A stretch of DNA of 54,501 bases from the NCBI RefSeq assembly GCF_001438845.1, contig NZ_JQCL01000008.1:1-54501 (forward strand). The letters are read 5' to 3'. Below, piece after piece: positions 9,330 through 50,558 of the stretch (positions are counted from its first letter, which is position 1; the number at the start of each line of letters is the position of its first letter). The stretch comes from Lactiplantibacillus xiangfangensis. GTDB lineage: Bacteria; Bacillota; Bacilli; Lactobacillales; Lactobacillaceae. The notes below the pieces were generated by a model. It did not search any database and was not told where the DNA came from. It saw only the letters and a program-made list of their open reading frames with translations. A program made the translations under genes and the position numbers.

Positions 9330-9518
9330 GAGTGCAGTCGGGTAGTCTTGGTGTGCTGTGTCGGCAAGATTGGCAGAAGTTTCTTATCTGCCAATCTTGC
9401 AGGGCGATTTAAAGACGCGAGTTATCGGCTTTGAATTGAGGGAGCAGACCGCACTTCGGCTGCGACCGTCCCCCATAGCACACCAGGGCTACCCGACGGA
9501 GCGGATAATTTAGGAATG
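9330..9518 (+). repeat. Structured intergenic repeat, copy A
   Basis: Copy A of a three-copy family. The closing helix pairs CGGGTAG (9339-9345) with CTACCCG (9489-9495) and TGGTGTGCT (9349-9357) with AGCACACCA (9477-9485). Inside are a perfect 14-bp hairpin (9364-9400), a helix pairing CGATTTAAAG (9405-9414) with CTTTGAATTG (9429-9438), and a small hairpin GCAG/CTGC (9444-9463) with loop ACCGCACTTCGG. Helices covary with copies B and C. The sequence after it (to about 9556) resembles the flank of copy B. It lies 114 bp past the stop of the exporter gene. Function is unknown. Confidence 0.85.
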
Positions 9519-9631
9519 ACTGTCACTACTGTAACGGTGTTAATAACAGTTTTGGACTTTTCAACCTTTAAGCATTTATTATAAACGCTAGCTAGACCAG
9601 TCTTGTTGACCAATTTTTAACTAACATTATT

Positions 9632-11146
9632 TTATTGATTCAAATCATGACGGACACCCAGTGCTGACCACCAATGGTGCGCTGGCTTTGATTTTGGTGC
9701 ACAAAAGCCCCAGATGTTAACGGCCAAACCAATGACTAATAAGACTAAGGCGACACCCATAATGTGGTGTAACCCAGTATGCAAAATCGTCCGCATGGCG
9801 GGCAATAGGTGCGCCGGCAACTTGCTAGCGCTGGTCGCGTCACTGAGCTCATTCATCATGTTCATCGTAATTTGTCCACCCGACTTAGCGACCCCCGTCG
9901 TTAACGCGTGGTTCAACACGATACTATAAATCGACGCCATAAACGTCTGACCAAGCATCCGAACTAATAAGCTAAACGACGTCGCAATCGGTACGTCTTG
10001 GTGGCGCGCCTGCTGCTGAACACTGACTTGCAATACGGTAAAACAAATTCCAATCCCGCATCCCTGAAACGCACTCGCCAACAATAAAAAGCCGTAGTTC
10101 GTCTGACGCCCAGCCAAAGCTAGTAGGCCACAGGCAATCAACATGCCCCCAAAGCCAATCATCACAACGGTTCGGGTCGACCACCGACGTTCCATGTTGC
10201 CACTCCACTGCGCCCCCAAGAAGTTCGTCACGGAACCAGGAATCTGAGTAACCCCCCCGATAACGGCCGTCGTTCCAAGGAGCCCCTGTGCCCACATTGG
10301 CACGTAGACGTTAAACCCAACGAAGAAACCGTAAATGAGGAAGAACATGACAAACGCCGCCAATAGGTACCGATTTTTAAAGAGTCGCAACGGAATAATC
10401 GGATCACTTGCCCGGCGTTCGACCATTGTTAGCGCAACTAGTAGGCTAATGGCGAGTAAAATAATCAATCCAATAATAGCGGCTGGTAGCTTGCCAATCA
10501 TTTCAATGCCGACTAATAGACTCACGAGGCCACCGCTTAGTAAAACGGCGCCCAAGTAATCGACCTTATCCGTCGCGGGTTTAACAGCTGGTGCCCGGTA
10601 TAGCCACTGAATAATGGCAATCGACGCCAACCCAATCGGCACGTTAATGTAAAATACCCAGTGCCAACCAAAGTTATCCACAATAAAGCCACCGACTAAT
10701 GGGCCAATAATTGCAGCGGTACTAAAGCTGGCCGTCACGTAGCCAAAGACTTTTCCACGCTTGACCGGATCTTTGTAAATCTCAGCGTAGATGATATAGG
10801 GAATTGCGGTCATCCCGCCACTCCCAATCCCCATCACGGTCCGCGCCGCAATGAGAAAGATAATATTTGGTGCCAAACCTTCAAGGAGGGCACCGAGTAC
10901 AAAAATCAACGTGGAAATTTGATAGGCAGACTTATTGCCAATTCGTTCCCCTAACTTACTCCAGAGTGGCGTCGTTACCGCACCACCCAATAGGAATACC
11001 GCAACGATCCACCCCATTAGCTGCAGCCCGTGCAGGTCACTAATGATGGCCGGCAACGCCGTACTAATAATGGTACTATCTAAACCGTTCATTGCGTTGG
11101 ATAATAGCAACGCAATCGTTACGATCATAATGACTTTTTTCGACAC
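9632..11146 (-). CDS. MFS drug:H+ antiporter, DHA2 (14-helix) family
   Basis: The 504-residue protein has fourteen hydrophobic segments. It carries the DHA2 helix-1 motif GLDSTIISTALPAI, the loop 2-3 motif GERIGNKSAY and the helix-5 motif GPLVGGFIVDNFGWHWVFYIN. It resembles EmrB/QacA/LmrB-type exporters, so proton-driven efflux of a toxic or antibiotic compound is inferred; the substrate is unknown. The start is GTG at 11146, because GGAGG lies seven bases upstream; an upstream in-frame extension lacks a ribosome site. There is no neighbouring regulator. No terminator lies immediately after it: copy A of the structured repeat comes first, then a terminator at 9174. Confidence 0.88.
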   Translation of the reverse strand: MSKKVIMIVTIALLLSNAMNGLDSTIISTALPAIISDLHGLQLMGWIVAVFLLGGAVTTPLWSKLGERIGNKSAYQISTLIFVLGALLEGLAPNIIFLIAARTVMGIGSGGMTAIPYIIYAEIYKDPVKRGKVFGYVTASFSTAAIIGPLVGGFIVDNFGWHWVFYINVPIGLASIAIIQWLYRAPAVKPATDKVDYLGAVLLSGGLVSLLVGIEMIGKLPAAIIGLIILLAISLLVALTMVERRASDPIIPLRLFKNRYLLAAFVMFFLIYGFFVGFNVYVPMWAQGLLGTTAVIGGVTQIPGSVTNFLGAQWSGNMERRWSTRTVVMIGFGGMLIACGLLALAGRQTNYGFLLLASAFQGCGIGICFTVLQVSVQQQARHQDVPIATSFSLLVRMLGQTFMASIYSIVLNHALTTGVAKSGGQITMNMMNELSDATSASKLPAHLLPAMRTILHTGLHHIMGVALVLLVIGLAVNIWGFCAPKSKPAHHWWSALGVRHDLNQ

Positions 11147-11250
11147 CGAAATTCCTCCAAAATATGTAAAAACTGATTGTAAAATAAACACCTTCTTTTA
11201 GCCTACACTACTTTTCTGAAGGTGACCACGGTCTTTTCAGAAAAGGCCAC

Positions 11251-11287
11251 AAAAAAACACCCCGTTCCGGCTGAAGGAACGGGGTGT
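11251..11287 (-). terminator. Terminator of the GNAT gene
   Basis: ACACCCCGTTCC and GGAACGGGGTGT form a perfect 12-bp stem followed by T7 on the minus strand. Confidence 0.9.
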
Positions 11288-11368
11288 CAAATCTAAAGCG
11301 TGTTTATTTTGTTGTTGTCGAGTGGCTAACTCAACAAATTGAGTATAAAACCTGAAACCCGTTACAGG

Positions 11369-11896
11369 TCAAGCACTTTTTACACGTAGCCATTCATTTT
11401 TATTCAAGGCGTACGCCATCACATGAATTAGTTCGCCAGTCGGTAACGTAAACGTTTGGAGTTCCCCTTCATCACGCATGCCTAATTTTGCCATCACTCG
11501 CCCAGAACGCGGGTTCACGCTCGCATAGTGCGCTTCGATGCGGGTCAGCCCTAGATTTTCAAATCCGTACGTCATCATTTTTTGACCGGCTTCTGCGACG
11601 TAGCCGTGGCCCCACGCTGCCGGGCTCAGTGCATACGTCAGTTCACCCGTTTGCGCATCGACGTGAAACTCGTAAAACCCGATTAATTGGTGATCCCGTT
11701 TACGTTCCAGTCCGAAGGTTGTCGTCGAATCTGCCAAGAAGTGAGTCTTAAAGGCATCGTCGAACTCAGCCGGCGTCTCAAGCGTGCGATAGCGCAAATA
11801 AGCCACCACTCGGGGGTCTAAAATCATCGCTTGCAACGCATCGTGATCACTGGCCCGAATTGGGCGAATCAATAAACGTTCCGTTTCAAATTGCAT
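11369..11896 (-). CDS. GNAT N-acetyltransferase, RimJ/RimL type
   Basis: The 175-residue protein opens with FETERLLIRPI, the standard first strand of RimJ/RimL/SpeG-like acetyltransferases, and has the acetyl-CoA loop region AAWGHGYVAEAGQKMM and the late motif ENLGLTRIEAHYASVNPRSGRVMAKLGM. It transfers an acetyl group from acetyl-CoA to an amine, often a ribosomal protein N-terminus or a small molecule; the substrate cannot be told. The start is ATG at 11896, eight bases after AGAGAGG. It is a single gene between two terminators. Confidence 0.85.
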   Translation of the reverse strand: MQFETERLLIRPIRASDHDALQAMILDPRVVAYLRYRTLETPAEFDDAFKTHFLADSTTTFGLERKRDHQLIGFYEFHVDAQTGELTYALSPAAWGHGYVAEAGQKMMTYGFENLGLTRIEAHYASVNPRSGRVMAKLGMRDEGELQTFTLPTGELIHVMAYALNKNEWLRVKSA

Positions 11897-11993
11897 CTCA
11901 GTATCCTCTCTTAGTTCCACTTAATTTACTTTGTCAGTATAGTCATAAAATGGCAAATGTAAATTATTTTGCCTGTTTTCAATACGACTCGAA

Positions 11994-12044
11994 TCGCAAA
12001 AAGAGGGGCTCAAGAAAAAATTCTCAAGCACCCTCTTTTTGCGA
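11994..12044 (-). terminator. Terminator of the suf operon
   Basis: A long hairpin with arms AAAAAGAGGG-x-GCTTGAGAA and TTCTTGAGC-x-CCTCTTTTT lies 13 bases after the sufB stop. Arms rich in A and T let it work in both directions. Confidence 0.9.
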
Positions 12045-12056
12045 TTTCAGGATTCC

Positions 12057-13472
12057 TTAACCGATGGACCCTTCCATTTCAAAACTAATCAAACGGTTTA
12101 ATTCCACCGCGTATTCCATTGGTAACTGCTTCGTAAATGGTTCCACAAAGCCCATAATAATCATTTCAGTGGCCTTTTGTTCCGAAATCCCCCGACTCAT
12201 CAAGTAATAGAGTTGGGCTTCTGAAACTTTAGACACCTTCGCTTCGTGTTCCATAGAGACATTACCATTCAAAATTTCATTATATGGAATCGTATCACTG
12301 GATGATAAGTCATCCATAATGATGGTGTCACATTCAACGTGGGCAAAGGACCCGTCGGAGTGGCGACCAAAGCGCACGGTCCCCCGATAATCAACTGCAC
12401 CACCATCCTTAGCAATCGACTTTGAAACGATGGACGACGTCGTATTCTTCGCGTTATGGATCATCCGCGCCCCGGTATCCTGATCAACGTTTTGACCAGC
12501 CACCGCGATTGACAACATCGTGCCGTGAGCGCCCTGACCATTCAAATAGACGGATGGGTACTTCATCGTAATTTTAGAACCTAAATTACCGTCGACCCAT
12601 TCCATCGTGGCATTTTCCATTGCTTGAGCGCGCTTCGTCTCCAAGCTGTACACGTTGTTCGACCAGTTTTGAATGGTCGTGTAACGGCAAGTCGCATTCG
12701 CTAAAACATTAACTTCAACGACCGCGGCGTGCAAACTGTCTGAATCGTAGTTGGGTGCGGTACAGCCTTCCACGTAATTAACGCTGGCCCCTTCGTCCAC
12801 GATGATCAAAGTTCGTTCAAACTGGCCGGTGTTTTCCGCGTTAATCCGGAAGTATGACTGGATTGGCGTCGTAACCGTCACACCCTTTGGCACGTAAATA
12901 AACGTCCCACCAGACCAAACCGCACAGTTCAACGCAGCGTACTTGTTCGTGTCAGCCGGAACGAGTTTCCCAAACCACTTTTTAAAGAGTTCCGGGTACT
13001 TTTGAAGGGCGGTATCGGTATCCGTAAAGATGATTCCCGTCTTTTCAAACGTTTCTTGCATCCGGTGATAAACTACTTCGGACTCATACTGGGCACTTGA
13101 ACCCGCGAGGTACTTACGTTCTGCTTCCGGTACCCCTAAGCGATCAAACGTCTGCTTGATTTTATCCGGCACATCATTCCAGTCACGGTACTTTTTGTCG
13201 GTCGCTTTCTGGAAATATTTCATGTGCACTAAATCCAGACCGCTCAAATCTGGCCCGACTTTAGGTTCTGGTAATTTCTGATAAATTTTATAAGCCTTTA
13301 ACCGGTAATCTAACATCCACTGTGGTTCGTGTTTTTCGGCTGAAATCTGACGAACAATGTCTTCATTCAAGCCTTCCCCCGTTGAATAGACCGGCGTCAC
13401 ATCGTCGTGAAACCCGTATTCATAACTCTCCGTTCCAGCGGTAACTTCTTGGGCCTTATTTGGTTTTGTCAT
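12057..13472 (-). CDS. sufB: Fe-S cluster scaffold subunit SufB
   Basis: The 471-residue protein is a full-length SufB, with the long beta-helix core and the C-terminal region around [22 protein letters not shown]. In the SufBC2D complex it receives sulfur and assembles a 4Fe-4S cluster. The ATG at 13472 is chosen because GGGGG lies nine bases upstream; the ATG at 13481 abuts that site. It overlaps sufU by 17 bases and is the last gene of sufC-D-S-U-B, the usual Firmicutes order. Confidence 0.95.
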
Positions 13473-13914
13473 CAGCGTCATCCCCCATCGTTAATAATTG
13501 ATCCGCGGCGTGCCACGCAAGCGTTGCACACTTGATGCGGGTCGGAAATTCGGCAACCGTTGCTAAGACCGCGGCGTCGCCGAGTGCATGCTGATCAGCA
13601 TCATTCAACGAATCACCCGTAATCAAATCTGAAAAGTCGGTTAGCCGTTTTTGGGCTTCTGTAACGGTTTGCCCTTTTAAAACGTCGGTCATAATGCTAG
13701 CTGACGCCTGTGAAATGGTACACCCACTGCCCGTAAACATAATCTGATCAATAACGTCATCCTTAATCAGCATCTGAACATTGATTTCATCCCCACAAGT
13801 GGGATTATGCAGTGTGACCGTCTTCGCATTCGGAAGCGTCCCAAAGTGGTGTGGCGCCTGCGCATTCTCCAAGATCACGGTCTGGTAGAGGGCTTTTAGT
13901 CTTAATAAACTCAT
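13456..13914 (-). CDS. sufU: Zinc-dependent sulfurtransferase SufU
   Basis: The 152-residue protein has the three SufU cysteines: Cys40 (NPTCGDE), Cys65 (GSGCTIS) and Cys129 (RIKCATL), with the conserved Asp after Cys40. SufU binds zinc through these and accepts persulfide from SufS, replacing SufE. It is in the IscU-like fold family, but the extra region between the second and third Cys is typical of SufU. Its ATG overlaps the sufS stop in ATGA, so translation is coupled. Confidence 0.95.
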
Positions 13915-15134
13915 GATTCAAAGAACTCCTTTACCGATTCCAACGCCGTTAAGAGCCGATCCACGTCATCGGAATTATTATAGAGGCCGACACTCGCACG
14001 AACGGTCGCATTAACGTGCAAATAACGCATCAACGGTTGGGCACAGTGGTGACCCGCTCGAATTTCCACCCCAGCTAAGTCTAGTCCGGTCGCAATATCG
14101 TGCGCGTGAACGTTGTCGACATTAAACGCAACAACGGGGCCGTGTAATTCTGGTGACTCTGGCCCGTAGACGGTGATGCCCGGCATCGCAATCAGTCCAG
14201 TTAAGAGCTGCTTGGTCAGCCGCTGTTCAATCGCTTGCGCCGTGTCCAACCCGACACTCTGCAAGTAGGTCAGTGCAGCACCTAAGCCAATGACGCCACA
14301 AATATTCGGCGTCCCGGCTTCAAACCGTTCTGGAATTGCAGCAAATTCAGTTGTTTGCCAGTCAACATCACTGATCATCTCGCCACCAAATTGGGCGGGC
14401 GTTAATTGGGACAATAAGTCATATTTACCATATAACACGCCCACTCCGGTTGGACCATAGATTTTATGCGCTGAAAAGGCATAAAAATCCGCGTCGAGGT
14501 CCTGCACATCAACTGCCATGTGGGCAATTGATTGGGCACCATCGACAACCAAGATGGCGTTCTGAGCGTGGGCAATTTGGGCCAACTGCTTGATTGGGTT
14601 CGTCACACCTAAGACGTTTGACGCCTGTGCAACCGCCACCACTTTGGTCTTTGCCGTAATCTGTTTGCGCGCATCCGCTAGGTCTAACTGACCATCCGCC
14701 GTTAACCCAATGTACTTTAAGGTCGCACCCTTCCGGTGGGCCAACTGTTGCCACGGCACTAAGTTACTGTGATGTTCCATCACGGTCACGACGATTTCAT
14801 CGCCGGCCGTCACGAACTGCTCACCGTAAGTTTGGACCACCCAGTTCAGACTATCCGTCGTTGAGCGGGTAAAAAAGACCTCTTCGCGTCGTGCAGCATT
14901 GAGCCACTGCGCAACTTGGTCACGAACAACTTCGTAACGGTCCGTCGCTTGTGCGGCTAACGTATATACACCCCGGTGAACGTTCGCGTTGCCGTGTGCA
15001 TAAAAGTCCGCCATTGCATCAATAACCGCCTGTGGTTTTTGGCTGGTCGCCGCGTTGTCCAAATAAGTTAATGGTTCATCATTAATTTTAGTTTGTAAGA
15101 TTGGAAAATCTTGGCGATACTCATTCGTTGTCAT
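13911..15134 (-). CDS. sufS: Cysteine desulfurase SufS
   Basis: This 407-residue class V aminotransferase-fold enzyme uses pyridoxal phosphate to take sulfur from L-cysteine. The PLP lysine is Lys224 (SAHKIYGP), the nearby VDGAQS motif holds the cofactor, and the catalytic Cys364 lies in AGHHCAQP, the group II (SufS) arrangement with a short active-site loop. It passes the persulfide to SufU, encoded next. It overlaps sufD by 14 bases. Confidence 0.95.
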   Translation of the reverse strand: MTTNEYRQDFPILQTKINDEPLTYLDNAATSQKPQAVIDAMADFYAHGNANVHRGVYTLAAQATDRYEVVRDQVAQWLNAARREEVFFTRSTTDSLNWVVQTYGEQFVTAGDEIVVTVMEHHSNLVPWQQLAHRKGATLKYIGLTADGQLDLADARKQITAKTKVVAVAQASNVLGVTNPIKQLAQIAHAQNAILVVDGAQSIAHMAVDVQDLDADFYAFSAHKIYGPTGVGVLYGKYDLLSQLTPAQFGGEMISDVDWQTTEFAAIPERFEAGTPNICGVIGLGAALTYLQSVGLDTAQAIEQRLTKQLLTGLIAMPGITVYGPESPELHGPVVAFNVDNVHAHDIATGLDLAGVEIRAGHHCAQPLMRYLHVNATVRASVGLYNNSDDVDRLLTALESVKEFFES

Positions 15135-16404
15135 CTGCTAATCGCCTCTCAATCAAGTTCATAAGACTCTTGCGTAGCCGTGGTGAACGTAACTCAGTCA
15201 CTACGCCAGCTAAGAATCCGCGGATGACTAAGCGTTGTGCGACTGGTTCGGGAATGCCCCGGCTCAATAAGTAGTACATTTGTTGCTCGTCAACCCGGCC
15301 AACACTAGCCGCGTGACCCGCTTCAACGTCGTTTTCATCAATTAATAAGATTGGGTTTGCATCACCACGGGCTTCTGACGATAACATCAGTAACCGGTTC
15401 TCTTGATCTGCTTTCGAGCCGTGCGCACCGTGTACAATGTGACCGATACCGTTAAAGATCAACGTAGCTTCATCTAAGATGACGCCCCGTTGCACAATGT
15501 TGGCCACCGAATTAGGGCCGTAGTTCGTGACCCGGGTATCCATCCCCTGTGTCTGTTGCTGATTAGCCACCGCAATCGTCTTCACGTTGGCTTCCGAGCC
15601 GCGACCACGCAGTTCGGTATCAAAGTCAGCAATCACTTGTCCAGCATTCATTTCCGCAAGTTCCCAGTTCAAATGGGCATCTGGGCTGAGCACCCCACGC
15701 CGGTTCAAGTAAGCCGTTGTATTAGCCGCCAAATTGTCAATACCAGCAAAGCTGACGTGACTGTTGGCACCCGCCACGACCTCCACGACCATGTGGACAA
15801 TTGCGGCGTTCGTTCCCACGCTACCTAAGCGTTGGACAATCTCAACCTGACTACTTGGTTCAGTCACAACTAAGTTATGCTGAACAAAATTTTGTGATTG
15901 CCGTTGATCGACTAATTGCAAAATCTCTAACGGTTCCTTGAGGACTACGTTAGCGGGCACGTAAAGAAAGAAGCCGTTGGTCATCAGCGCTGCGTTTAGC
16001 GCCGTCAACTTATCACTGTCAGCCTTGAGTGCCTGATTAAAGAGATTGGCTTTGACCAAATCACCATGTTCACGGATAGCCGTTTTCAAGTCGCATAAAA
16101 TAACGCCTTGCGCACGTGCGGCTTTTGGCAAGTTAACCCGCACCGTGGTATCGCCCAAGCTGTAAAAGTTGGTCTGTTCCCCACGAGCACTGAGGTCGGC
16201 GGTCACTTCAGGCTCATCGCTCACTTGTGGTGCGGTGACGTCGAGTAGTGGCCAAGAGCGATAATTGATTTTTTCAAACACTGGTAGGGGTAACGTCGCG
16301 TAGTTCGCCACGGCCTGCGTACGTAATTTCGTCAACCAACCAGGTTCTGCCTGCGTTTCACTATAGTCTTGAACGCCGGCTAACATCGTTGCTGTTTGCA
16401 TCAT
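15121..16404 (-). CDS. sufD: Fe-S cluster assembly subunit SufD
   Basis: The 427-residue protein is a SufB paralogue with the same beta-helix core and the C-terminal pattern DENDVEAGHAASVGRVDEQQMYYLLSRG broken by small changes. The conserved His in EAGHAAS is part of the SufB-SufD interface where the cluster forms. AGGGGG precedes two adjacent ATG codons. It begins eight bases after sufC. Confidence 0.93.
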   Translation of the reverse strand: MMQTATMLAGVQDYSETQAEPGWLTKLRTQAVANYATLPLPVFEKINYRSWPLLDVTAPQVSDEPEVTADLSARGEQTNFYSLGDTTVRVNLPKAARAQGVILCDLKTAIREHGDLVKANLFNQALKADSDKLTALNAALMTNGFFLYVPANVVLKEPLEILQLVDQRQSQNFVQHNLVVTEPSSQVEIVQRLGSVGTNAAIVHMVVEVVAGANSHVSFAGIDNLAANTTAYLNRRGVLSPDAHLNWELAEMNAGQVIADFDTELRGRGSEANVKTIAVANQQQTQGMDTRVTNYGPNSVANIVQRGVILDEATLIFNGIGHIVHGAHGSKADQENRLLMLSSEARGDANPILLIDENDVEAGHAASVGRVDEQQMYYLLSRGIPEPVAQRLVIRGFLAGVVTELRSPRLRKSLMNLIERRLADDNE

Positions 16405-16412
16405 ACCGCCCC

Positions 16413-17201
16413 CTACTCGTCATCCGTCAAAGAAACGTCAAGGTGCAGTTCATCACGCAAACCTGCGTAACCTTCCGCTTCCAACTTGTTTGCTAAGTCG
16501 GCGTCGCCGGTTTTCACAATTCGGCCACCCATCATGACGTGTACGTAGTCGGGGACGATGTAATTCAATAACCGTTGGTAGTGGGTAATCATGAGCGTCC
16601 CAAAATCAGGATTTTTGAGGGCGTTAACCCCTTTAGCAACGACTTGTAACGCATCAATATCCAAGCCAGAGTCAATTTCGTCTAAAATGGCAAATTTTGG
16701 TTTAATCATCAAGAGCTGTAAAATTTCGTTGCGTTTCTTTTCACCGCCTGAGAAGCCTTCGTTTAAGTACCGTTCAGCCATTTCATCGGTCATGTTTAAT
16801 AGTTCCAAATTATGGTCTAAGTCAGCCAAAAAGTCCGTGACGCTGATTGGATCATCCTTATCACGACGCGCGTTTACCGCAGCTCGTAAGAATTCAACGT
16901 TAGTAACCCCTTTGATTTCAGCTGGGTATTGCATGGCTAAAAATAGGCCAGCCCGCGCCCGTTGATCGACCGTTTGACTTAACAAGTCTTTACCGTCTAA
17001 CGTCACAGAACCACTGACAACGTGATACGCTGGATTCCCCATAATCGTTTCCGATAACGTTGATTTTCCCGTTCCGTTCGGACCCATGATGGCATGAGTT
17101 TCCCCCGTATGAAGCGTTAAATTAACACCCTTTAAAATTAAGTGTTCCTGTTCGTTTTCGGTTACACTGACCTTTAAATCTTTAATGACTAGTGTTGACA
17201 T
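16413..17201 (-). CDS. sufC: Fe-S assembly ATPase SufC
   Basis: The 262-residue ABC-type ATPase has Walker A GPNGTGKST (residues 40-48), signature FSGGEKKR and Walker B FAILDEIDSG. SufC drives the conformational change of the SufBC2D scaffold. It is the first gene of the operon, with GGGG eight bases before the ATG. Upstream (17202-17571) I see a TATACT box at 17291-17296 on the minus strand but no convincing -35, and nothing else. Confidence 0.95.
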   Translation of the reverse strand: MSTLVIKDLKVSVTENEQEHLILKGVNLTLHTGETHAIMGPNGTGKSTLSETIMGNPAYHVVSGSVTLDGKDLLSQTVDQRARAGLFLAMQYPAEIKGVTNVEFLRAAVNARRDKDDPISVTDFLADLDHNLELLNMTDEMAERYLNEGFSGGEKKRNEILQLLMIKPKFAILDEIDSGLDIDALQVVAKGVNALKNPDFGTLMITHYQRLLNYIVPDYVHVMMGGRIVKTGDADLANKLEAEGYAGLRDELHLDVSLTDDE

Positions 17202-24943: not shown

Positions 24944-25051
24944 GACGTTCCCCCACTTGCTTTTCTTGATATCGGTTTCATTATACATTTTGGCCTTGCT
25001 TTTCAAAAAAATAAGCACATCTTCAATGTGTAACTTATTTGCAAGAACATA

Positions 25052-25240
25052 TTATTTAGCACAGGCGGGTAGGATTGGTGTGCTGTGTCGGCAATATCAG
25101 ATAGCGTTTTAGGCTGTCTGATATTGCGGGGCAATTCAAAGACGCGGGCTATCGGCTTTAAATTGAGGGGCCAGACCGCACTTTGGCTGGGTCCGCCCCC
25201 CATAGCACACCAGTTCTACCCGCCGGAGCGGCTAATTTAG
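25052..25240 (+). repeat. Structured intergenic repeat, copy B
   Basis: The closing helix pairs GGCGGGTAG (25064-25072) with CTACCCGCC (25216-25224) and continues through GGTGTGCT/AGCACACC. Inside are a hairpin GCAATATCAGA/TCTGATATTGC (25091-25127), CAATTCAAAG/CTTTAAATTG (25132-25165) and CCAG/CTGG (25171-25190) with loop ACCGCACTTTGG. A short hairpin with GCCAACGC and GCATTGGC follows (about 25240-25270) before an AT-rich tract. A minus-strand terminator separates the copy from the transporter gene at 25333, so minus-strand readthrough is not its obvious source. Confidence 0.88.
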
Positions 25241-25285
25241 CCAACGCCAGTATCGCTGTTACAGCATTGGCAATAATTTTAAAAG

Positions 25286-25330
25286 TAAAAAGCACTTTCC
25301 AGAAATTTTACATCTCTAAAAAGTGCTTTA
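25286..25330 (-). terminator. Terminator of the transporter-phosphodiesterase operon
   Basis: AAAGCACTTT and AAAGTGCTTT flank a loop and are followed by a T tract on the minus strand, immediately after the stop codon at 25333. Confidence 0.8.
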
Positions 25331-25332
25331 AC

Positions 25333-43273: not shown

Positions 43274-43301
43274 GAAAGCATTATCAAGAGGAGGCTTTTT
43301 C

Positions 43302-43712
43302 ATGATCAAACCCGTTGTCCACGACCCAGCGGCGTTACAAACACCAGCGCAAGCTGCGACCCGTGCTGATTTGCCAACCGTTACCAACTTACTAGACACA
43401 CTTTCAGCGAATAGCGATTCCTGCGTTGGGATGGCCGCCAACATGATTGGCGTCAACAAACGCATCATTGTCGTTCAAATGGGACCATTAGCCGTTCCAA
43501 TGATCAATCCTCAAATCATTAACAAGACCGGATCTTATCAGACGAGCGAAGGGTGTTTATCCTTAAGCGGTGAACGGCCGACAACGCGTTATCACCAGAT
43601 TACGGTCAAGTTCGTTAACCAGAATTTTGCCCCCCAACAACAGACTTTTCGTGACTTCGTTGCCCAAATCATTCAACACGAAGTCGATCATTGTAACGGT
43701 ATCCTAATTTAA
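43302..43712 (+). CDS. Short peptide deformylase-like protein
   Basis: The 136-residue protein has motif 2 EGCLS with Cys85 and motif 3 QHEVDH with His126, Glu127 and His130, the full metal site of peptide deformylase. Motif 1 reads GMAANM (43-48) instead of GxGLAAxQ, so the Gln that positions the substrate is missing. It is shorter than housekeeping deformylases (about 185 residues). It is probably a second, specialised deformylase; the main def gene should be elsewhere. GAGGAGG lies seven bases before the ATG at 43302. apbE follows after 25 bases. Confidence 0.8.
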   Translation: MIKPVVHDPAALQTPAQAATRADLPTVTNLLDTLSANSDSCVGMAANMIGVNKRIIVVQMGPLAVPMINPQIINKTGSYQTSEGCLSLSGERPTTRYHQITVKFVNQNFAPQQQTFRDFVAQIIQHEVDHCNGILI

Positions 43713-43737
43713 TTTTCCACAGATTGGACGGATTTTG

Positions 43738-44739
43738 ATGGCAACTCTTAATGACAATCAACAACCAGCCGTTGATAACTTAGCTAGTCAACGACGACAC
43801 CTCGCACACCACGCACTAGGAACTGATATCGACTTGACCTTACTCGGTAGCGACCGTTCGGACTACTTAACTCAAGCCTGTACCCTCATCGACCAGTACG
43901 AAGACCGGCTAACGGTCAACCGGTCGCATTCCGAAGTCATGGCGATCAATCAAGCCGCGGGACAACACCCCGTACAAGTCAGTGCTGCGACCTACAGCCT
44001 CGTTAAGCGAGCAGTGCAACTCAGTCAGCAGCACTTTGGCTTCAATGCGCTAATTGGCCCACTCGTCAAACTTTGGCGAATTGGCTTTTCAAACGCCCAC
44101 GTTCCTAGTGACGCGGAAATTCAGGACCGCTTACGACTCGTCGATCCCCAGCAAGTGGTGTGTCACGACGCCGATTTCAGCGTGTTTTTAAAAGTCGCTG
44201 GAATGGAGCTGGATCTCGGTGGTATCGCGAAGGGCTACATTGCCGATCGCATTCAGGACTACTGGGAAGCCTTTGGGCAACGCGCCGGCATGATTAATTT
44301 AGGCGGAAACCTATTGATGTATGGCGATTCGCCCTTACACGCTGACGGTCAGTGGCGGGTCGGCATCCAAAACCCACTGACACCCCGCGGAAATGCGATT
44401 GCCAGTGTTCAAATAGGGCCTTGTTCAGCCGTTACGAGTGGCATTTATGAACGTCACTTGGAATTTAACGGGAAATCCTACCATCATATTCTGGATTCTA
44501 AGACGGGCTATCCGCGTCAAAATGACCTTGAAAGTGTCACGATCTTTTCAAAAGCCTCCATTGACGGTGAGATTGAAACGACCCGGTTATTCTTTGCCGG
44601 CGGCCCACTTCCCGACTGGGGTAAAGACCGCCCAGACTTGTACGGCGCCATCTTCGTTAATAAGCAACGCCAGCTAAAAATTGTTGGCTTGCCCGTTGAA
44701 CGTGTCACCATCTTGGATGACAACTTTTCCATTCAGTAA
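43738..44739 (+). CDS. apbE: FAD:protein FMN transferase ApbE
   Basis: The 333-residue protein has ApbE motifs: LDLGGIAKGYIAD (about 158-170), MINLGGNLLMYG, a C-terminal SGIYERHLEFNGKSYHHILD segment and the Mg-binding DGEIETTRLF. It attaches FMN to a Thr/Ser of target proteins such as extracellular flavin reductases or fumarate-reductase-like proteins. There is no lipoprotein signal, so it is probably cytoplasmic. ATG 43738 follows GGACGGA; the TTG just before it is less likely. Co-transcribed with the deformylase-like gene. Confidence 0.9.
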   Translation: MATLNDNQQPAVDNLASQRRHLAHHALGTDIDLTLLGSDRSDYLTQACTLIDQYEDRLTVNRSHSEVMAINQAAGQHPVQVSAATYSLVKRAVQLSQQHFGFNALIGPLVKLWRIGFSNAHVPSDAEIQDRLRLVDPQQVVCHDADFSVFLKVAGMELDLGGIAKGYIADRIQDYWEAFGQRAGMINLGGNLLMYGDSPLHADGQWRVGIQNPLTPRGNAIASVQIGPCSAVTSGIYERHLEFNGKSYHHILDSKTGYPRQNDLESVTIFSKASIDGEIETTRLFFAGGPLPDWGKDRPDLYGAIFVNKQRQLKIVGLPVERVTILDDNFSIQ

Positions 44740-44781
44740 AGTTACCGGTCACAAATGGACTTAAAGTTCATCATTTTAAAC

Positions 44782-44825
44782 ACAAAGAACGCTTTGAGCT
44801 GTGCATGGCTCAAAGCGTTCTTTGT
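44782..44825. terminator. Bidirectional terminator between apbE and the MucBP protein gene
   Basis: ACAAAGAACGCTTTGAGC and GCTCAAAGCGTTCTTTGT form a perfect 18-bp stem between convergent genes. Confidence 0.9.
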
Positions 44826-44857
44826 TGTGATCATTCTTTAATTTGGAAGTGAAGTAA

Positions 44858-47554
44858 TTAGTGGCGCTTACGGAACACGACTAGTCCGGCCATTAACCCG
44901 GCTAGTGCGAGTCCCCATCGTTGCGCGCGTGGGGCAACTTGTTCATCAGTCTGTGGTAACGTTTGCCGTTTAGTCCCCATCGTGGCTGGTTTTGATGCGG
45001 GACGGCGCTTCTTTAAGTCCCGTTTAGAATGCTGGAACTGCTTTATGGCTAAAGGTGCCTTGCCACTCGGATTGGTTAATTTCGAATTGGGCGTTGGTAC
45101 TGGTTGGGAATCCGGCGTTGGCTCCGGATTTGGTTTGGGTTTTGAATCTGAGTCTGGTTCAGGTACTGGATCGGCCTCTTGTCCCAGATCTGGTTCCGGT
45201 GCTGGTTCTGGCTCTGGCTCTGGCTTTGGTTCAGGTTTGGGCTCTGGTTCCGGTTCAGGTTCGGGCTCTGGCTCTGGTTCCGGTGCTGGTTCAGGTTCAG
45301 GTTCCGGTGCTGGTTCAGGTTCAGGTTCAGGTTCAGGCTCAGGCTCCGGTGCTGGTTCAGGTTCAGGATTCGGTTCAGGATTCGGTTCAGGTTCTGGTTC
45401 TGGTTCTGGTTCCGGCTCCGGCTCTGGTTCCGGCTCTGGTTCTGGTTTCGGCTCTGGTTCTGGTTCTGGTTCCGGTGCTGGCTCTGGTTCCGGATCTGGT
45501 TCCGGTTCGGGTTCCGGTTCTACAGGAACCTCTTCCCGTTCATAAATAAACGTCACTTCTTGTTCACCATTGCCATACTGTCCGTATTCGTTCCCATCAA
45601 CGGCCGTCAAGTGCCAACCTTCAATGGTTACATGCGCCACCGTATAACTAGTCCCTAACTTACCCTCGAGCGTTTGACTGGGACGTAACGGCTTGTTATC
45701 CGTATCAACATAGTGCACCGTCACTTTTCCAATTCTCTTACGGTAGTTGAGCACAATGTTGACATCCTGATCGCCAAACTTTCCCGTTAGTTGGCCGTCT
45801 GCTGCCGTTAGCTCTTGACCATCCTGTTCCGCAGAAACAAAGTCGTACCCCGGCATAACTGGAACGTCAATCGTCCAATCCGATCCGGGGACTCCGGTTG
45901 GGGCCGTTACCGGTACATCGGCAATGGGCTGTCCATCTTCATCCTTAGCTTCGACCGTCACTTTATGCTTGGTCTTTTCCAGCACAAACGTGACCGTATT
46001 TAATTGCTCGCCAACAATCCAATTAGTGTCTCCCTGAACGGTTTTAAGACTGTAACCTTTCTTGCTCAGTTCCTCGAGGGCGGCGGTCACTTGCGAATTT
46101 TTTGTCAAGTCCTGGGTCTGCCCGATTTGATCAAATAAGTTTAACGCTTGCGTCAAGGCGTTGCCGTCTTCATCGACAAAATTAACTTGGGCGTTGCCAG
46201 CCTGATCATCAATTAAATAATGAATCACAACATTGCCATTAAACGGATACGACGATGTTGACCCGTTAATCCCCACCGTCTTAAATTGCATCACTAACAT
46301 GCCTTGCGGGGACTGGAAGTTTTGCCACTCAATTTCATAATCGTTAAGGTTAACACCGGTCGCCGTCGCAAATTGCGTTGACGGTGTTAAGGCAACCCGG
46401 TTCCCGTTAAGATCAATGATGTAGGCCGACGTTGTATACTTGCCCGTCTTTGGGTCAACGTGGATGCGAATTGGCGGCAAGTTGATTTGCTGGTTCCCCA
46501 CTGGGTATCCTTCGCCATCCAGTGACTGAACCGCATCGTGAATCACACTAATATCACTGACATAGTTATGTGAAACTGACAGTTCTTTTAAATGCCGCAT
46601 CCCCGCAATGGGCGTCAGATCACTGACCGACGTATCCTGGAGAATCAGCTCGGTCAAATCCATGCCTTGTAACGCACTAATGTCTTTCAGCTTACTCCGT
46701 CCCCGATTATACGGATAACCATGGTCGTCTAAAGCATCCAAAGAAATCGTAACCGTAAACCGTTTGAGATTTTTAGCGTACTCTAGTCCTTTTAAGCTCT
46801 CTAAATTTAATGACGCATCCAAATACGCCTTATCGTCACTTTGGTAATTAATATCCGTCGACCAATTATCATCCAGGTCCGCTAACATTTGTTTAGTAAT
46901 CTGACTAACATCTGTAAGCTGTAAATGCTGATTGTGTTGCAAATTATACAAGACGATGTACTGCAGATTTTTATCCGGCATCCACACATTAATATCTTCG
47001 GGTGCTTCCGTGGTGCGAGCAAGGGGCACGGGTGCGGTTGCCGCGGGAGCCGGTGTCTTGTCCTGTTCGTCAATCAAACTGTCCGTGTCAGTTTCTGAGT
47101 GTTCTAAAACCGCTGCTGAGTCCGGTACCCCCTCATTATCTGATTCATGATTAGCTGATCCATCCGCAACCACTTGCGCTTCAGAATCGCTTTGTTCAGT
47201 AACGTTCGGTGTCTCCGCTTGTGACTCAACAACTGTCGCGTTAGACGCTGATACCGACTGGTCAGAAACTGGTGCCACGTCGTTTCCTGCTAGATTAATA
47301 TCGGAATCGGTTTCATTCGTCCCCGTACGGGTTGATTGGGTTTGATTGCGCGATGTTGTGAGTGTAATGGTCTTGTCAAAACTGCTTTCATCAGTTTTAG
47401 CGCTTACAGTATCCTGCGTTTCGGTCATAGGTTCAGTCGTGTCCGCTTGAACCTCCAATTGATTGTAAACACCAACCATCAGGATTGTTGCTCCTGCAGT
47501 CAGCCATTTTTTACCACTTTTGTACATTTTGTAATGAACCTTTTCAGAATTCAT
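44858..47554 (-). CDS. LPQTDE-anchored LRR and MucBP surface protein
   Basis: The 898-residue protein has a KxYKxGKxW signal ([15 protein letters not shown]), a Ser/Thr/Glu-rich spacer, an internalin-like leucine-rich region (about 195-340, with [20 protein letters not shown]), two or three MucBP domains (about 440-700, each with VxFVDEDGN- or VHYVDTDNK-like starts), a PEPEPE wall-spanning stretch (about 705-810) and LPQTDE at 866-871. MucBP domains bind mucus or host glycans, so adhesion is inferred. AAAGGAG lies 12 bases before the ATG. Its sorting signal is the same as that of the protein at 30287. Confidence 0.9.
45180..45535 (-). repeat. Low-complexity Pro-Glu repeat inside the MucBP protein gene
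   Basis: Six-base units encode PE, AP and KP dipeptides. The opposite strand reads as an open Gly-Ser repeat and is not a gene. The tract is prone to length change and to misassembly. Confidence 0.85.
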
Positions 47555-47647
47555 ATCAGGGATAAACTCCTTTCCGTGTTGCCTATTTTTTATCGCACAT
47601 CGGAGTATACGGGAAGCATCCTAATTCGTAAAGTACCCAAATTAAGC

Positions 47648-47689
47648 AAAAAGCCACTCAAGCTGATTTTTCGTCAGTCGTTGAGTGGC
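47648..47689 (-). terminator. Terminator of the dihydrouridine synthase gene
   Basis: GCCACTCAA and TTGAGTGGC flank a loop and are followed by T5 on the minus strand. Confidence 0.85.
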
Positions 47690-47710
47690 ACGCGTTATTT
47701 TCTTAAGTGC

Positions 47711-48706
47711 TTATAAATCGCGTTCTAATCGGTCTACAATGGCTCGCACATCATCGGTTGTCTTTGTTTGCATTAATTCGTTACGAATTTCAGCTGCGTG
47801 CCGCATCCCGCGGACGTAAATTTTAAAGAACCGTTGTAAGGGTGCGAAGTGTCCTTGTAAACCTAAGGCAACAAATTGATCATATAGATCGACTTGGTAA
47901 CGTAAGAGTTCTAATAAATCCTTAGCGGAATGTTCTTTAGGCTCCGCTTCAAAAGCGTAGGGATTTTGGAAAATTCCACGCCCAATCATGATCCCATCGA
48001 CACCTGGGTGCTGTTCAGCTAACTGAATTCCCGCTTGATAGTCTAGGATGTCCCCATTGATTTGCAATAACGTATCCGGTGCGATGGTGTCTCGCATCTG
48101 AACCAAGTTATCGATCAGCTCATAGTGGGCTGGGACCCGACTCATTTCCATCTTAGTCCGCACGTGTACGGTTAAAACGGGAACTTGTTGTTTCAATAAG
48201 AATGGAATCCACGTCTCGTATTCTTCAACTGCGTCAAATCCTAACCGGGTCTTCACGCTGACGGGCAAATCTGCCTGCCGGGCGCCTTCGATAACTTCCT
48301 TGGCCCGATCGAAATGGCGGATAAGGTCACTCCCGCTGTGGTTTTTAATCACGGCCATGTCTGGGCATCCCATGTTTAAATCAATCGCCTGATAGCCTTT
48401 ACGAGCAACTTCGTGTGCCGCTTTGACGAAGTCTTCCTCCGAATTTCCCCATAGTTGCACAATTGGTTTCGGGTTTTCGGTAGGATCGACATAAAGTCGT
48501 CCCAAGGTCGTAAATTTGGCTTTGGGGTGGGTAATGCTTAAAGCGTTGGTAAATTCCGTATAAAATACATCTGGTGCGGCTGCCCGCATCACGACCCGCC
48601 GAAACACGGAGCCGGTGACCGCCTCCATGGGCGCTAAACTAAAAAACGGGCGGTGCGCTGCTTTTGCTTCTTTGACAACACCTTGCCAATAAGCCGACTG
48701 CGTCAT
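47711..48706 (-). CDS. tRNA-dihydrouridine synthase
   Basis: The 331-residue flavoenzyme has the TIM-barrel start FFSLAPMEAVTGSVFR, the catalytic Cys114 in DLNMGCPD and the FMN-binding GDI...GIMIGRGIFQNPYAF pattern. It reduces specific uridines in the tRNA D-loop with NADPH. Firmicutes carry two or three paralogues; which positions this one modifies is not clear. It is monocistronic. Confidence 0.92.
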   Translation of the reverse strand: MTQSAYWQGVVKEAKAAHRPFFSLAPMEAVTGSVFRRVVMRAAAPDVFYTEFTNALSITHPKAKFTTLGRLYVDPTENPKPIVQLWGNSEEDFVKAAHEVARKGYQAIDLNMGCPDMAVIKNHSGSDLIRHFDRAKEVIEGARQADLPVSVKTRLGFDAVEEYETWIPFLLKQQVPVLTVHVRTKMEMSRVPAHYELIDNLVQMRDTIAPDTLLQINGDILDYQAGIQLAEQHPGVDGIMIGRGIFQNPYAFEAEPKEHSAKDLLELLRYQVDLYDQFVALGLQGHFAPLQRFFKIYVRGMRHAAEIRNELMQTKTTDDVRAIVDRLERDL

Positions 48707-48883
48707 ATTATTGCCATTCCCTTCTAAAACATTTCTCTGTTAACACAATAAAACTATCATAGCGATTATTGCGAGTTCTGTACAATATTTTAATTGACCA
48801 TCCCAAAATTGAAAGATACAAATTGGTGACTTAATGGCCTAGCCTGATTGCCACTAGTCCTTTACTCTTATAGTATTGGCCAC

Positions 48884-48918
48884 AAAAAAAGGTAACGGAA
48901 AATGCCTTCCCGTTACCG
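48884..48918 (-). terminator. Terminator of the small membrane protein gene
   Basis: GGTAACGGGAA and TTCCGTTACC form a stem followed by T7 on the minus strand. It supports the small ORF at 48947 being a real transcribed gene. Confidence 0.85.
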
Positions 48919-48946
48919 CTAAAATAGCAAAATTGATTAAAATCGA

Positions 48947-49141
48947 TTATTTAAATAATAACAAAGCTAACATTAACAGTCCCACCATCAATAAGATGTT
49001 TAAAAATTCGGTCCGTAAGTTAGTTAACTTCAGCGAGCTGAATGTGACACCGGCGCCAGCATCCATATATCTGAAGAAAACCCCACTAAGTACGATACCA
49101 ACCATTAAGACAACTAAAAACAATACTCCCGTCATCAACAT
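48947..49141 (-). CDS. Small two-helix membrane protein
   Basis: The 64-residue protein has two membrane helices (about 3-25 and 45-63) joined by a short polar loop with FSSLKLTNLRTEF. GAGGAG lies 11 bases before the ATG and a strong terminator follows. I do not recognise a family. Its size and topology fit a holin-like, toxin or stress membrane peptide, but nothing in the neighbourhood decides. Confidence 0.7.
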   Translation of the reverse strand: MLMTGVLFLVVLMVGIVLSGVFFRYMDAGAGVTFSSLKLTNLRTEFLNILLMVGLLMLALLLFK

Positions 49142-49353
49142 TACAAACTCAACTCCTCATCCGGTAAAATTTTAGGCCCCTTTTCAGGCCACATTTATTG
49201 TGGACCTGCCCCCCTTTTCAAGCAAGTTTTTTCGGTTAAAAACACCGGCTTCTTAGCATTTTTTTATTAACAAAATCGCACCCAATTGAGCCACAAAATT
49301 GTGCGTGTTAAAATAAGCATTAACCTTAATGAACGGATGAAAGTGTGATTACG

Positions 49354-50247
49354 ATGACCATTAATGATCTCCAAGCGTTTACCATGGTGTACGAATTGCG
49401 CCACATTTCTAACGCTGCCGTGGAACTTCACCTCTCACAATCTGAGCTATCTAAACGGATGCACTCACTAGAAACTGAATTAAACATTAAGCTACTTGAT
49501 ACTTATAATAAACGGAATCTTAAAATCACACCCGCGGGCGAAACCTTTTATCATCACGCGCAAAAAATAATTGCCGATTACGAACAGATGCTTCAAGATC
49601 TAGCTACTAACCGGCCAACAACCTTCAAGCAACTCACAATCGGCTCGATACCAGTCTCTGGACAGTACAACATCGCGCAAAGGATCGGGGTATTTGACCA
49701 ACAACACCCGGAGATCGACCTTAAAGTGATTGAAGGCGAAGGTCATCAAATCGTGACCCAATTGCTGGCCGGCAAGTTGCAAGCAGCCATCATCCGGGAT
49801 ACCCAAACTTACCAGCTTCAACCAACGGATTTTGTCAAACAAACCTTACAACAAGATGAACTGATGATTATCCTGCCGGCAAACCACCCGCTGGCGACAC
49901 AGTCGACGATTCGAATCAAAGATCTCGCACATCAAAAAATTGCGACGCTGCCACCAGGTTCAGGTGTTTACGAACCTATTACCCAGCTCTTTGCACGTCA
50001 GAGCGTCACACCCCAGTTTTTCTTTGAAAGCACCCACATCGAAACCTTGCTCAGTATGCTGGGACAAAACAACGTCACCTTGCTGTTTAAGCAGTCAGCA
50101 CTCCCCTTTATGACCGACCAGTTCGTTATGCGGTCGTTAGCCATTCCATTCATGAGTCAATTAACCTTTGTGTATCCACAGCGCAGTGGCAACCAACTAC
50201 TGACTGATTTGATTGACTCTTTAGTGATTAGCCGGCACACCAATTAA
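49354..50247 (+). CDS. LysR family regulator, probable regulator of gallate metabolism
   Basis: The 297-residue protein has the LysR winged helix (residues 1-60, with ISNAAVELHLSQSELSKRMHSLE divided by the turn) and a periplasmic-binding-protein-like effector domain. The gene is convergent with lpdC. In L. plantarum a LysR protein (TanR) controls tannase, lpdC and the gallate permease genes, and its gene lies next to lpdC, so this is a likely TanR equivalent. The start ATG 49354 gives the usual LysR spacing to LQAF; GTG 49345 is possible. Confidence 0.85.
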   Translation: MTINDLQAFTMVYELRHISNAAVELHLSQSELSKRMHSLETELNIKLLDTYNKRNLKITPAGETFYHHAQKIIADYEQMLQDLATNRPTTFKQLTIGSIPVSGQYNIAQRIGVFDQQHPEIDLKVIEGEGHQIVTQLLAGKLQAAIIRDTQTYQLQPTDFVKQTLQQDELMIILPANHPLATQSTIRIKDLAHQKIATLPPGSGVYEPITQLFARQSVTPQFFFESTHIETLLSMLGQNNVTLLFKQSALPFMTDQFVMRSLAIPFMSQLTFVYPQRSGNQLLTDLIDSLVISRHTN

Positions 50248-50249
50248 TG

Positions 50250-50306
50250 AAAAATAGTCAGTTATCAGATTGGAAACACTTACTAATCTGATAACTGACT
50301 ATTTTT
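50250..50306. terminator. Bidirectional terminator after lysR
   Basis: AAAAATAGTCAGTTATCAGA and its exact complement form a 22-bp stem around a 13-base loop. It also lies downstream of repeat copy C on the minus strand. Confidence 0.92.
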
Positions 50307-50357
50307 CGCCTTAACTATCAAAAGCTAGCATTGAATTAATTCCAACATGACAACCGT

Positions 50358-50558
50358 ATTTAGCGAAGGCGGACAGAAACAATATGCTGTGTCGGCAATA
50401 ACAGCCGGCGTTTTCTTAGCCGGGAGTTATTGCGGGGTGACTCAAAGACGTGGTTTATCGGCTTTGAATCAAGGTTCCAGACCGCACTTTGGCTGGAGCC
50501 GTCCCCCATAGCATATCGTTTCTGTCCGACGAAGCGGTTTGAAAACACTTATTTCAAA
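50358..50558 (+). repeat. Structured intergenic repeat, copy C
   Basis: The closing helix pairs CGGACAGAAAC (50370-50380) with GTTTCTGTCCG (50518-50528), then ATATGCT with AGCATAT. Inside are a hairpin GCAATAAC/GTTATTGC with a CCGGC/GCCGG tip (50395-50433), TGACTCAAAG/CTTTGAATCA (50438-50471) and TCCAG/CTGGA (50476-50497) with loop ACCGCACTTTGG. Its arms differ from copies A and B yet stay paired. A short TTTGAAA/TTTCAAA hairpin (50538-50558) follows and overlaps the lpdC stop codon. Confidence 0.88.

What the first reader, a model, noticed from the sequence alone, without database searches (positions are those of the whole stretch)
9330..50558. Three-copy intergenic element with a covarying four-helix fold
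Copies A (9339-9495), B (25064-25224) and C (50370-50528) share about 160 bp. The helices change sequence but stay paired. The closing helix is CGGGTAG/CTACCCG in A, GGCGGGTAG/CTACCCGCC in B and CGGACAGAAAC/GTTTCTGTCCG in C. The large hairpin is GCAAGATTGGCAGA in A, GCAATATCAGA in B and GCAATAAC plus CCGGC in C, each with its complement. The small hairpin is GCAG/CTGC, CCAG/CTGG and TCCAG/CTGGA. Unpaired segments are nearly invariant: GTGTCGG, ACGCGRGYTATCGG, ACCGCACTTYGG and CCGYCCCCCAT. This is the signature of a selected RNA structure, or of a mobile element whose folded form matters. I cannot match it to a known family.
Basis: partly seen in the sequence, partly recalled or inferred. Interest (0 to 1): 0.88.

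Follow-up and report, generated by a model that had tools for sequence, protein, structure and literature searches.

The report
Mobile DNA repeat carrying structured RNA
The repeat is a small, gene-less jumping element that has copied itself many times through Lactiplantibacillus genomes, apparently using the machinery of a known transposon type, and it carries one or two copies of a complex RNA-like fold whose shape has been preserved while its letters changed.

Summary
The three copies belong to a dispersed family: the core module (M1) lies at 83 distinct places in the own-genome stretches I fetched, with hits in 15 of 20 congeners. Elements with clear ends are 338-668 bp MITEs with terminal inverted repeats CTAAAG[AG]TTGAAA and 7-8 bp target duplications. 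One has an empty site in a relative. IS4-family insertion sequences with the same ends occur in relatives, two of them with exact 7-bp duplications; they fit the ISPepr1 subgroup. Inside the MITE lie one or two ~180-nt modules, M1 and an inverted paralogue M2. M1 has a branched fold in which 53 of 65 pairs show changes on both sides across species, no Rfam match and no coding signal. For M1, G-U exceeds A-C in the sense strand and the reverse holds in the antisense strand's own fold, so one strand, probably RNA, is selected; for M2 the strand is undecided. What the RNA does is not shown; a cis effect on read-through transcripts is my best guess. New variant of a known kind.

The parts
9331..9508 (+). 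Copy A, module M1 (four-helix fold)
   Evidence: CM R1 196.5 bits; closing helix 9337-9360/9474-9497 and hairpin 9364-9377/9387-9400
9219..9572 (+). Copy A, probable whole MITE: left TIR TAAAGATTGAAA at 9219, right TIR CTTTTCAACCTTTAAG ending 9572; module M2 absent
   Evidence: TIR scan (L009 1384-1737, here shifted by one base by eye); sequence; flanks CATTCAT (9212-9218) and CATTTAT (9573-9579) agree at 6 of 7 bases, so the target duplication is imperfect
25058..25235 (+). Copy B, module M1
   Evidence: CM R1 191.7 bits; fold -97.5 kcal/mol, z -8.4
25236..25283 (+). Copy B, eroded right arm of the MITE (no recognisable TIR)
   Evidence: read by eye against the right arms of other copies; end approximate
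50362..50541 (+). Copy C, module M1 without recognisable arms or TIR, between convergent LysR and UbiD-type genes
   Evidence: CM R1 170.7 bits; arms 50370-50391/50507-50528

Best explanation
The copies are members, some decayed, of a Lactiplantibacillus MITE family moved in trans by an IS4-family (ISPepr1-like) transposase. SHOWN by sequence: elements end in CTAAAG[AG]TTGAAA inverted repeats, make 7-8 bp target duplications, carry no gene, and share ends and duplication length with insertion sequences that encode a DDE transposase. SHOWN: they carry one or two ~180-nt modules, M1 on one strand and a diverged paralogue M2 on the other, head to head, and compensatory changes preserve the folds. 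SUPPORTED: for M1 the selected form is a single strand read in its sense direction, which fits RNA better than a duplex cruciform. UNDECIDED: the selected strand of M2. INFERRED: the modules act in cis on transcripts that run into the element. It sits mostly at gene 3' ends, and a transcript entering a two-module element from either side meets an antisense module and then a sense module, so a read-through RNA would end near one very stable folded domain. That domain would protect, process or bind something on the 3' end and make insertion tolerable. Which of these it does is not known.
For: Ends and duplications: 10 elements with exact 7-8 bp duplications. In a scan that did not assume the ends 19 of 137 copies pass, against 29 of 680 with swapped right flanks; by my reading 14 of the 19 have recognisable TIRs (two loosely) and 5 look like chance. 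TIR pattern in own genome: 38 rows against 1 for the reversed pattern, by my grouping 34 sites in 25 elements, of which 22 carry M1 or M2. Empty site: own TTATTTA-[378 bp]-TTATTTA, relative G004 one TTATTTC. IS: L211 1565 bp, NF049925 IS4 transposase E 2e-144; G019 and G020 copies with exact 7-bp duplications GACTTTA and ATAGGAG (the G020 one has an open frame of 466 aa, the G019 one is split over two frames). Fold. Strand of M1: G-U:A-C in the sense fold 72:18, 250:53 and 65:14 (31, 105 and 20 sequences), in the antisense strand's own fold 21:45, 59:138 and 13:37. Recent selection on M1: in 21 nearest-neighbour pairs above 93% identity one-sided changes leave both copies paired 41 times and one unpaired 31 times (33% kept expected), and all 8 two-sided changes keep pairing. 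Context: 39 convergent, 29 co-directional, 4 divergent, 12 at stretch ends, of 84 entries (83 places).
Against: No transcript data: expression is not shown. The M2 strand bias does not survive its control: 115:60 in the sense fold but also 81:63 in the antisense fold (56 sequences), 41:27 and 40:36 in 19, so M2 says nothing about strand and a single DNA strand (M1 sense, M2 antisense) is not excluded. M2 is also weaker among close copies: 7 kept, 6 broken and one broken two-sided change in 5 pairs above 93%; 67 kept, 80 broken at 87-93% against 35% expected. The cis role rests on position and symmetry; enrichment between convergent genes is also reported for pneumococcal repeats and IS elements (PMC3049150, passage), and this genome's background was not measured. 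An M1-only element moved without M2 (L056), so symmetry is not needed for movement. The G008 IS has no exact duplication, and no transposase was found in the own genome, so the MITE-IS link rests on relatives. Three TIR loci hold no module (L194, L195, L197). The null is home-made, not R-scape.
Confidence: 0.55

Rival explanations
1. The fold acts as DNA: hairpins or cruciforms, or one exposed strand, are recognised by the transposase or a host protein, and selection at transposition keeps the arms complementary.
For: The element is mobile; 22 of 25 exact-TIR elements in the own genome keep a module; structure is kept even in recent M1 copies; M2 shows no clear strand preference, as a one-strand or duplex DNA model allows.
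Against: A duplex cruciform predicts G-T and A-C intermediates equally; M1 shows a strong sense-strand bias that reverses in the antisense fold. IS4-type DDE transposition as generally described has no long single-stranded intermediate (recalled). The G008 IS has no room for the modules: 1377 of its 1565 bp are the open frame.
Confidence: 0.22
2. M1/M2 is a trans-acting or ligand-binding RNA (sRNA or riboswitch-like) that the host uses; the MITE is only its vehicle.
For: Loops and bulges are conserved (e.g. AGACCG...GGCT, GACG...CGGC) while helices turn over; spread over much of a genus.
Against: No hit in 5 of 20 congeners (strict filters). Few copies between divergent genes, 4 of 84 entries. 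In one element scanned, promoter matches were 2 overlapping ones against 0.7 expected. Of 9 sites shared between 21 G004 loci and the fetched own loci, the G004 M1 had its site partner as best own match at 2 (L077/L003, L155/L106; one search stopped with an error after 8 of the 9 site pairs had at least M1 ranked), which suggests turnover rather than conserved host loci.
Confidence: 0.15
3. An ordinary MITE whose folding is a by-product: hairpin arms are kept matching by template-switch (quasi-palindrome) correction or gene conversion, not by selection.
For: Such correction makes apparent compensatory changes in hairpins (general knowledge, recalled); in the P2 hairpin 14 of 14 pairs changed on both sides with 96.8% of cells paired.
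Against: The closing helix, whose arms are 113-115 nt apart, covaries too: 19 of 23 pairs, 5 of the 8 significant pairs. Correction should make perfect arms and no strand bias, yet M1 has an excess of G-U in one strand, bulges are retained and loops are conserved.
Confidence: 0.08

Closest known systems
IS4 family, ISPepr1 subgroup (De Palmenaer 2008, PMC2266710; passages and table row seen)
   Same: Partner IS 1559-1567 bp (table: 1500-1600), exact 7-bp duplications in 2 copies (table: 7-8), 5'-CT ends, AT-rich targets in most duplications seen, ends fit 7 of 8 listed positions of YT-AA-YTT---A, YREK spacing Y-2-R-3-E-6-K in L211 (read).
   Different: The MITE has no transposase and replaces the interior with folded modules absent from the IS. 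Position 7 of the end is G or A, not Y.
Pneumococcal BOX elements (PMC3049150; outline and passages seen)
   Same: Dispersed, modular, highly folded non-autonomous repeats, over-represented between convergent genes.
   Different: Sequences were not compared here; the text has no occurrence of 'covari' or 'compensat'. Here an inverted pair of a branched module lies on IS4-type ends.
Bacillus cereus repeats bcr1-bcr18 (PMC3446304 passages)
   Same: MITE-like bcr1-3 often found in UTRs or operons; bcr10 and bcr18 said to have conserved secondary structure and to be transcribed; 84 of 165 and 62 of 155 repeat copies were part of mRNA.
   Different: There the MITE-like and the structured-RNA repeats are named as separate families; here one element is both. 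No shared sequence tested.
REP/BIME/REPIN elements of RAYT transposases (PMC2817692 and PMC3733652: search listings only)
   Same: High-copy extragenic palindromes, often in alternating orientation.
   Different: REPs are 20-40 bp (listing abstract); here ~180-nt modules inside TIRs with 7-bp duplications. RAYT genes were not searched.
Correia/NEMIS and ERIC elements (PMC10969869 review, passages)
   Same: MITEs whose transcripts fold and are cut by RNase III or affect decay of the mRNA.
   Different: Different hosts; ends and core not compared; no branched covarying module described in the passages seen.

Membership tests
MITE (non-autonomous TIR element) | terminal inverted repeats | tested here: met
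   CTAAAG[AG]TTGAAA ends, 38 rows vs 1 control in own genome; pairs. Window copy A has imperfect TIRs; B and C have none recognisable
MITE (non-autonomous TIR element) | target site duplication and empty site | tested here: met
   10 exact 7-8 bp duplications; empty site for L056 in G004
MITE (non-autonomous TIR element) | short, no transposase gene | tested here: met
   338-668 bp; at most 26 of 105 M1 copies stop-free in any frame, lengths spread over all three phases
MITE (non-autonomous TIR element) | autonomous partner with the same ends | tested here: met
   IS in G008, G019, G020; none in own genome. Mobilisation itself not assayed
IS4 family, ISPepr1 subgroup (for the partner IS) | length 1500-1600 bp | tested here: met
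   1565, 1559 and 1567 bp
IS4 family, ISPepr1 subgroup (for the partner IS) | duplication of 7-8 bp | tested here: met
   GACTTTA and ATAGGAG, exact, in 2 IS copies; the G008 and G017 copies have none exact
IS4 family, ISPepr1 subgroup (for the partner IS) | ends YT-AA-YTT---A | tested here: inconclusive
   CTAAAGGTTGAAA fits 7 of 8 positions; position 7 is G, not Y
IS4 family, ISPepr1 subgroup (for the partner IS) | IS4-type DDE transposase with YREK | tested here: met
   NF049925 481.5 bits against a cutoff of 250; YGRRWQIECYFKVAK read
IS4 family, ISPepr1 subgroup (for the partner IS) | clusters with ISPepr1 in a transposase tree | not tested
   no ISPepr1 reference sequences were fetched
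Any Rfam family | score above the gathering threshold | tested here: not met
   0 matches in the window; sub-threshold hits for copy B and 9 loci implausible
REP/BIME of RAYT | 20-40 bp palindrome with Y1 transposase partner | tested here: not met
   size and architecture differ: ~180-nt modules within TIRs and 7-bp duplications; RAYT genes not searched

The most novel reading that the evidence does not exclude
A MITE family that spreads a true functional RNA domain with its own protein or ligand partner: the two head-to-head modules put one correctly folded copy at the exit of any transcript crossing the element from either side, making it an orientation-independent mobile 3'-end RNA device that has seeded gene ends across a genus.
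Probability: 0.27. Interest if true: 0.82.

Novelty: new variant of a known kind. Interest (0 to 1): 0.62.

Why it matters
In the MITE papers and passages I saw, bacterial MITEs are described by their ends and a folded transcript; I saw no case there of a branched internal fold kept by compensatory change. Here one genus offers dozens of copies per genome in several species, with an identifiable transposase, so whether a transposon's internal fold is selected for transposition, for tolerance at gene ends, or for a host role can be tested directly. The module also looks like an RNA class absent from Rfam 15, in a genus used in food, and the repeats matter for annotating gene 3' ends.

Tried and rejected
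Rejected: a known Rfam RNA; a coding element; a match of the MITE to plasmid or phage records (none for one 486-bp element at blastn sensitivity); inversion in place to explain the opposite orientation at sites shared with G004. Of the inverted pairs three were ranked for M1 and none is each other's closest copy: L129 vs L001 rank 43, L159 vs L107 rank 60, L161 vs L020 rank 6, so separate insertions or replacement fit better. One search ended in an error at the M2 step of L161, before the fourth inverted pair (L164/L002) was ranked.

For that reason I lowered the best explanation from 0.6 to 0.55 and the novel case from 0.3 to 0.27, and raised the DNA rival from 0.17 to 0.22. The copy number is now 83 places, because one of the 84 entries was counted twice.

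Led nowhere: the first genome contigs pattern found nothing because I wrote it with a spacing error; the corrected one found 46 stretches, all from L. daoliensis and one MAG. Promoter and terminator scan of one element was uninformative. That is a statement about those searches in the open-licence PMC set only; no paper was read in full.

Corrections to my own notes: note 1 says 16 of 20 congeners; the table gives 15 of 20. The 119 matches are not a copy number: they include antisense echoes of the same copies and M2 modules.

Rows dropped: one search used copies with nhmmer score 60 or more; one search used near full-length copies only (105 M1, 56 M2, several species); one search took 20 hand-picked sequences, leaving out among others G015, the weak L073-L076 hits and M2. 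The duplications come from elements found through their modules; the TIR pattern count (22 of 25) is free of that bias but needs exact TIRs, and its grouping into 25 elements was done by hand. L193 counts as having a module on a weak M2 hit (49 bits).
Full report
WHAT IS THERE. The three copies are real and lie where stated; a covariance model built from 31 own-genome copies scores them at 171-197 bits. They are three of a large family. In the own genome (2.99 Mb, 103 contigs; genus Lactiplantibacillus, because congener G009 matches L. daoliensis contigs) M1 lies at 83 distinct places with nhmmer score 60 or more in the stretches that I fetched, and M2 at 40. In 60 genomes searched, the own one included, 17 have hits: the own genome, 15 of 20 congeners, 1 of 16 genomes of other genera of the family and 0 of 23 genomes of other families.

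THE ELEMENT. Aligning flanks shows that M1 often has upstream an inverted second module, M2; in 26 of 29 composites listed the gap is 17-50 bp. The two point away from each other. Beyond them run conserved arms that end in inverted repeats CTAAAG[AG]TTGAAA. A TIR-pair scan found 10 elements of 338-668 bp with exact 7-8 bp direct repeats, such as TTAATAA, TTATTTA and CTCAGAC. A scan that did not assume the ends found 19 of 137 copies against 29 of 680 with exchanged right flanks; 5 of the 19 look like chance hits with other ends. Four G015 elements show TAGTTGT, TAAATGA, ACAAACAA and TTGACTAA. The exact TIR pattern occurs in 38 rows against 1 for the reversed pattern; by my grouping these are 34 sites in 25 elements, of which 22 hold a module.

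INSERTION SHOWN. For the 378-bp M1-only element of L056 the relative G004 (flanks 92 and 95% identical) has the uninterrupted site: own AAAGG-TTATTTA-[element]-TTATTTA-TTTCATT, G004 AAAGG-TTATTTC-TTTCATT. So a single-module element appears to have moved in since these species parted (precise loss in G004 is the less likely alternative). At the site of copy B, G004 carries a full two-module element in the opposite orientation. Of 21 G004 loci compared, 9 share a site with a fetched own locus: 5 agree and 4 are opposite in orientation. The three opposite ones that were ranked are not closest relatives, so gene gaps are re-used.

THE TRANSPOSASE. Identical TIRs at contig ends in two congeners pointed to a longer repeat. 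G008 holds a 1565-bp insertion sequence with the same ends and a 459-aa open frame that scores 481 bits (cutoff 250) against NCBIfam NF049925, IS4 family transposase. Relatives occur in 7 of 21 genomes of the genus, several broken or fragments; none in the own genome and none in G018. In G019 and G020 the IS is flanked by exact 7-bp duplications; in G008 and G017 it is not. The table of De Palmenaer and colleagues (PMC2266710, passage) gives for the ISPepr1 subgroup 1500-1600 bp, 7-8 bp duplications, and the text 5'-CT ends and AT-rich targets, which fits; the end consensus fits at 7 of 8 positions. A plasmid of L. plantarum carries a 97% identical copy over 91% of the protein. The own genome may have lost its transposase, or it may sit in an assembly gap.

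THE FOLD. M1 is a closing helix of about 25 pairs, a variable hairpin, a G-rich/C-rich helix, and two hairpins with conserved loops and a bulged A. In 31 own copies 31 of 61 predicted pairs have a compensatory change. In 20 sequences from several species 53 of 65 do; 94.8% of cells are paired, and double-change cells number 262 against 70 in shuffles and at most 55 in slid controls. In a home-made tree-based test all significant pairs lie in the fold: 8 of 8 for M1 (105 sequences) and 2 of 2 for M2 (56 sequences). M2 has the same general architecture with different sequence; 24 of its 65 predicted pairs have a compensatory change in 19 copies.

WHICH FORM IS SELECTED. In pairs whose commonest state is Watson-Crick, G-U outnumbers A-C in the sense fold of M1: 72:18, 250:53 and 65:14. 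Because the folding program favours G-U, I folded the antisense strand too: there the ratio reverses to 21:45, 59:138 and 13:37. So the M1 bias is real. For M2 the sense fold gives 41:27 and 115:60 but the antisense fold gives 40:36 and 81:63, so M2 shows no clear preference; the counts of 119:79 should not be read as one. Copies are related, so these are not independent counts. Among 21 nearest-neighbour M1 pairs above 93% identity, one-sided changes left both copies paired 41 times and one unpaired 31 times (33% kept expected by chance), all 8 two-sided changes kept pairing, and paired positions differed at half the rate of unpaired ones. M2 has only 5 such pairs: 7 kept, 6 broken and one broken two-sided change; at 87-93% identity 67 kept and 80 broken. 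Selection on the M1 fold is therefore recent; the data do not separate selection at insertion from selection in place.

WHERE IT SITS. Of 84 entries for own M1 copies 39 lie between convergent genes, 29 between co-directional genes and 4 between divergent genes; 12 are at stretch ends, and 10 overlap a crude ORF of 100 aa or more. The genome's background was not measured, and the same trend is reported for other repeats and IS elements (PMC3049150, passage). No coding frame is kept.

HOW IT PROBABLY WORKS. Movement: IS4-type DDE transposition in trans (supported by shared ends, duplications and the empty site; not assayed). RNA: read-through transcripts carry the folded module (inferred; supported for M1 by its strand bias). 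Because M1 and M2 lie head to head, a transcript from either side would end with a sense module after an antisense one. I think that the stable domain protects or processes the 3' end, or binds a protein, so that insertion near gene ends is tolerated. This last step is inference with perhaps one chance in three of being right in detail. A DNA-level role at transposition is the main rival.

COMPARISON AND NOVELTY. The element is a MITE by each test made. It differs from the repeats I compared in carrying a branched, covarying module of riboswitch size, often as an inverted pair. Nine literature searches listed no paper on it; the library holds only open-licence papers. I file it as a new variant of a known kind, with an RNA-like domain that has no Rfam match.

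Noticed in passing
L126 747-1152, L123 786-1192, L118 474-880 (own genome): A third subfamily in which both modules have diverged from M1 and M2 but keep the same head-to-head arrangement.
   Followed up: partly
window 25019-25332 and G004:C20:4884-5356: The orthologous gap holds a solo M1 in one species and a full two-module element in the opposite orientation in the other; 4 of 9 shared sites have opposite orientation.
   Followed up: partly
G008 contigs C20, C22, C28, C52, C56; G018 contigs C7, C26, C35, C44, C48, C55: Contigs end within about 80 bp of one identical TIR, so some multi-copy repeat with this end breaks these assemblies; G018 has no transposase match, so it need not be the IS.
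   Followed up: no
NZ_CP035114.1 67963-69205 (L287): An IS4-type transposase 97% identical to the partner IS lies on an L. plantarum plasmid in two pieces, with no gene listed there in the PLSDB table, which is incomplete.
   Followed up: no
L228 759-1137 (G020): A 379-bp element with M2 but M1 missing, as if M1 can be lost as a unit.
   Followed up: no
window 50249-50307: A strong hairpin with 28-nt arms, A/T-rich at its foot, right after the LysR gene and beside copy C, like a two-way terminator.
   Followed up: no
window 49345-52018: LysR regulator and UbiD/VdcC-type hydroxyaryl acid decarboxylase, a phenolic-acid locus as in L. plantarum (recalled).
   Followed up: no
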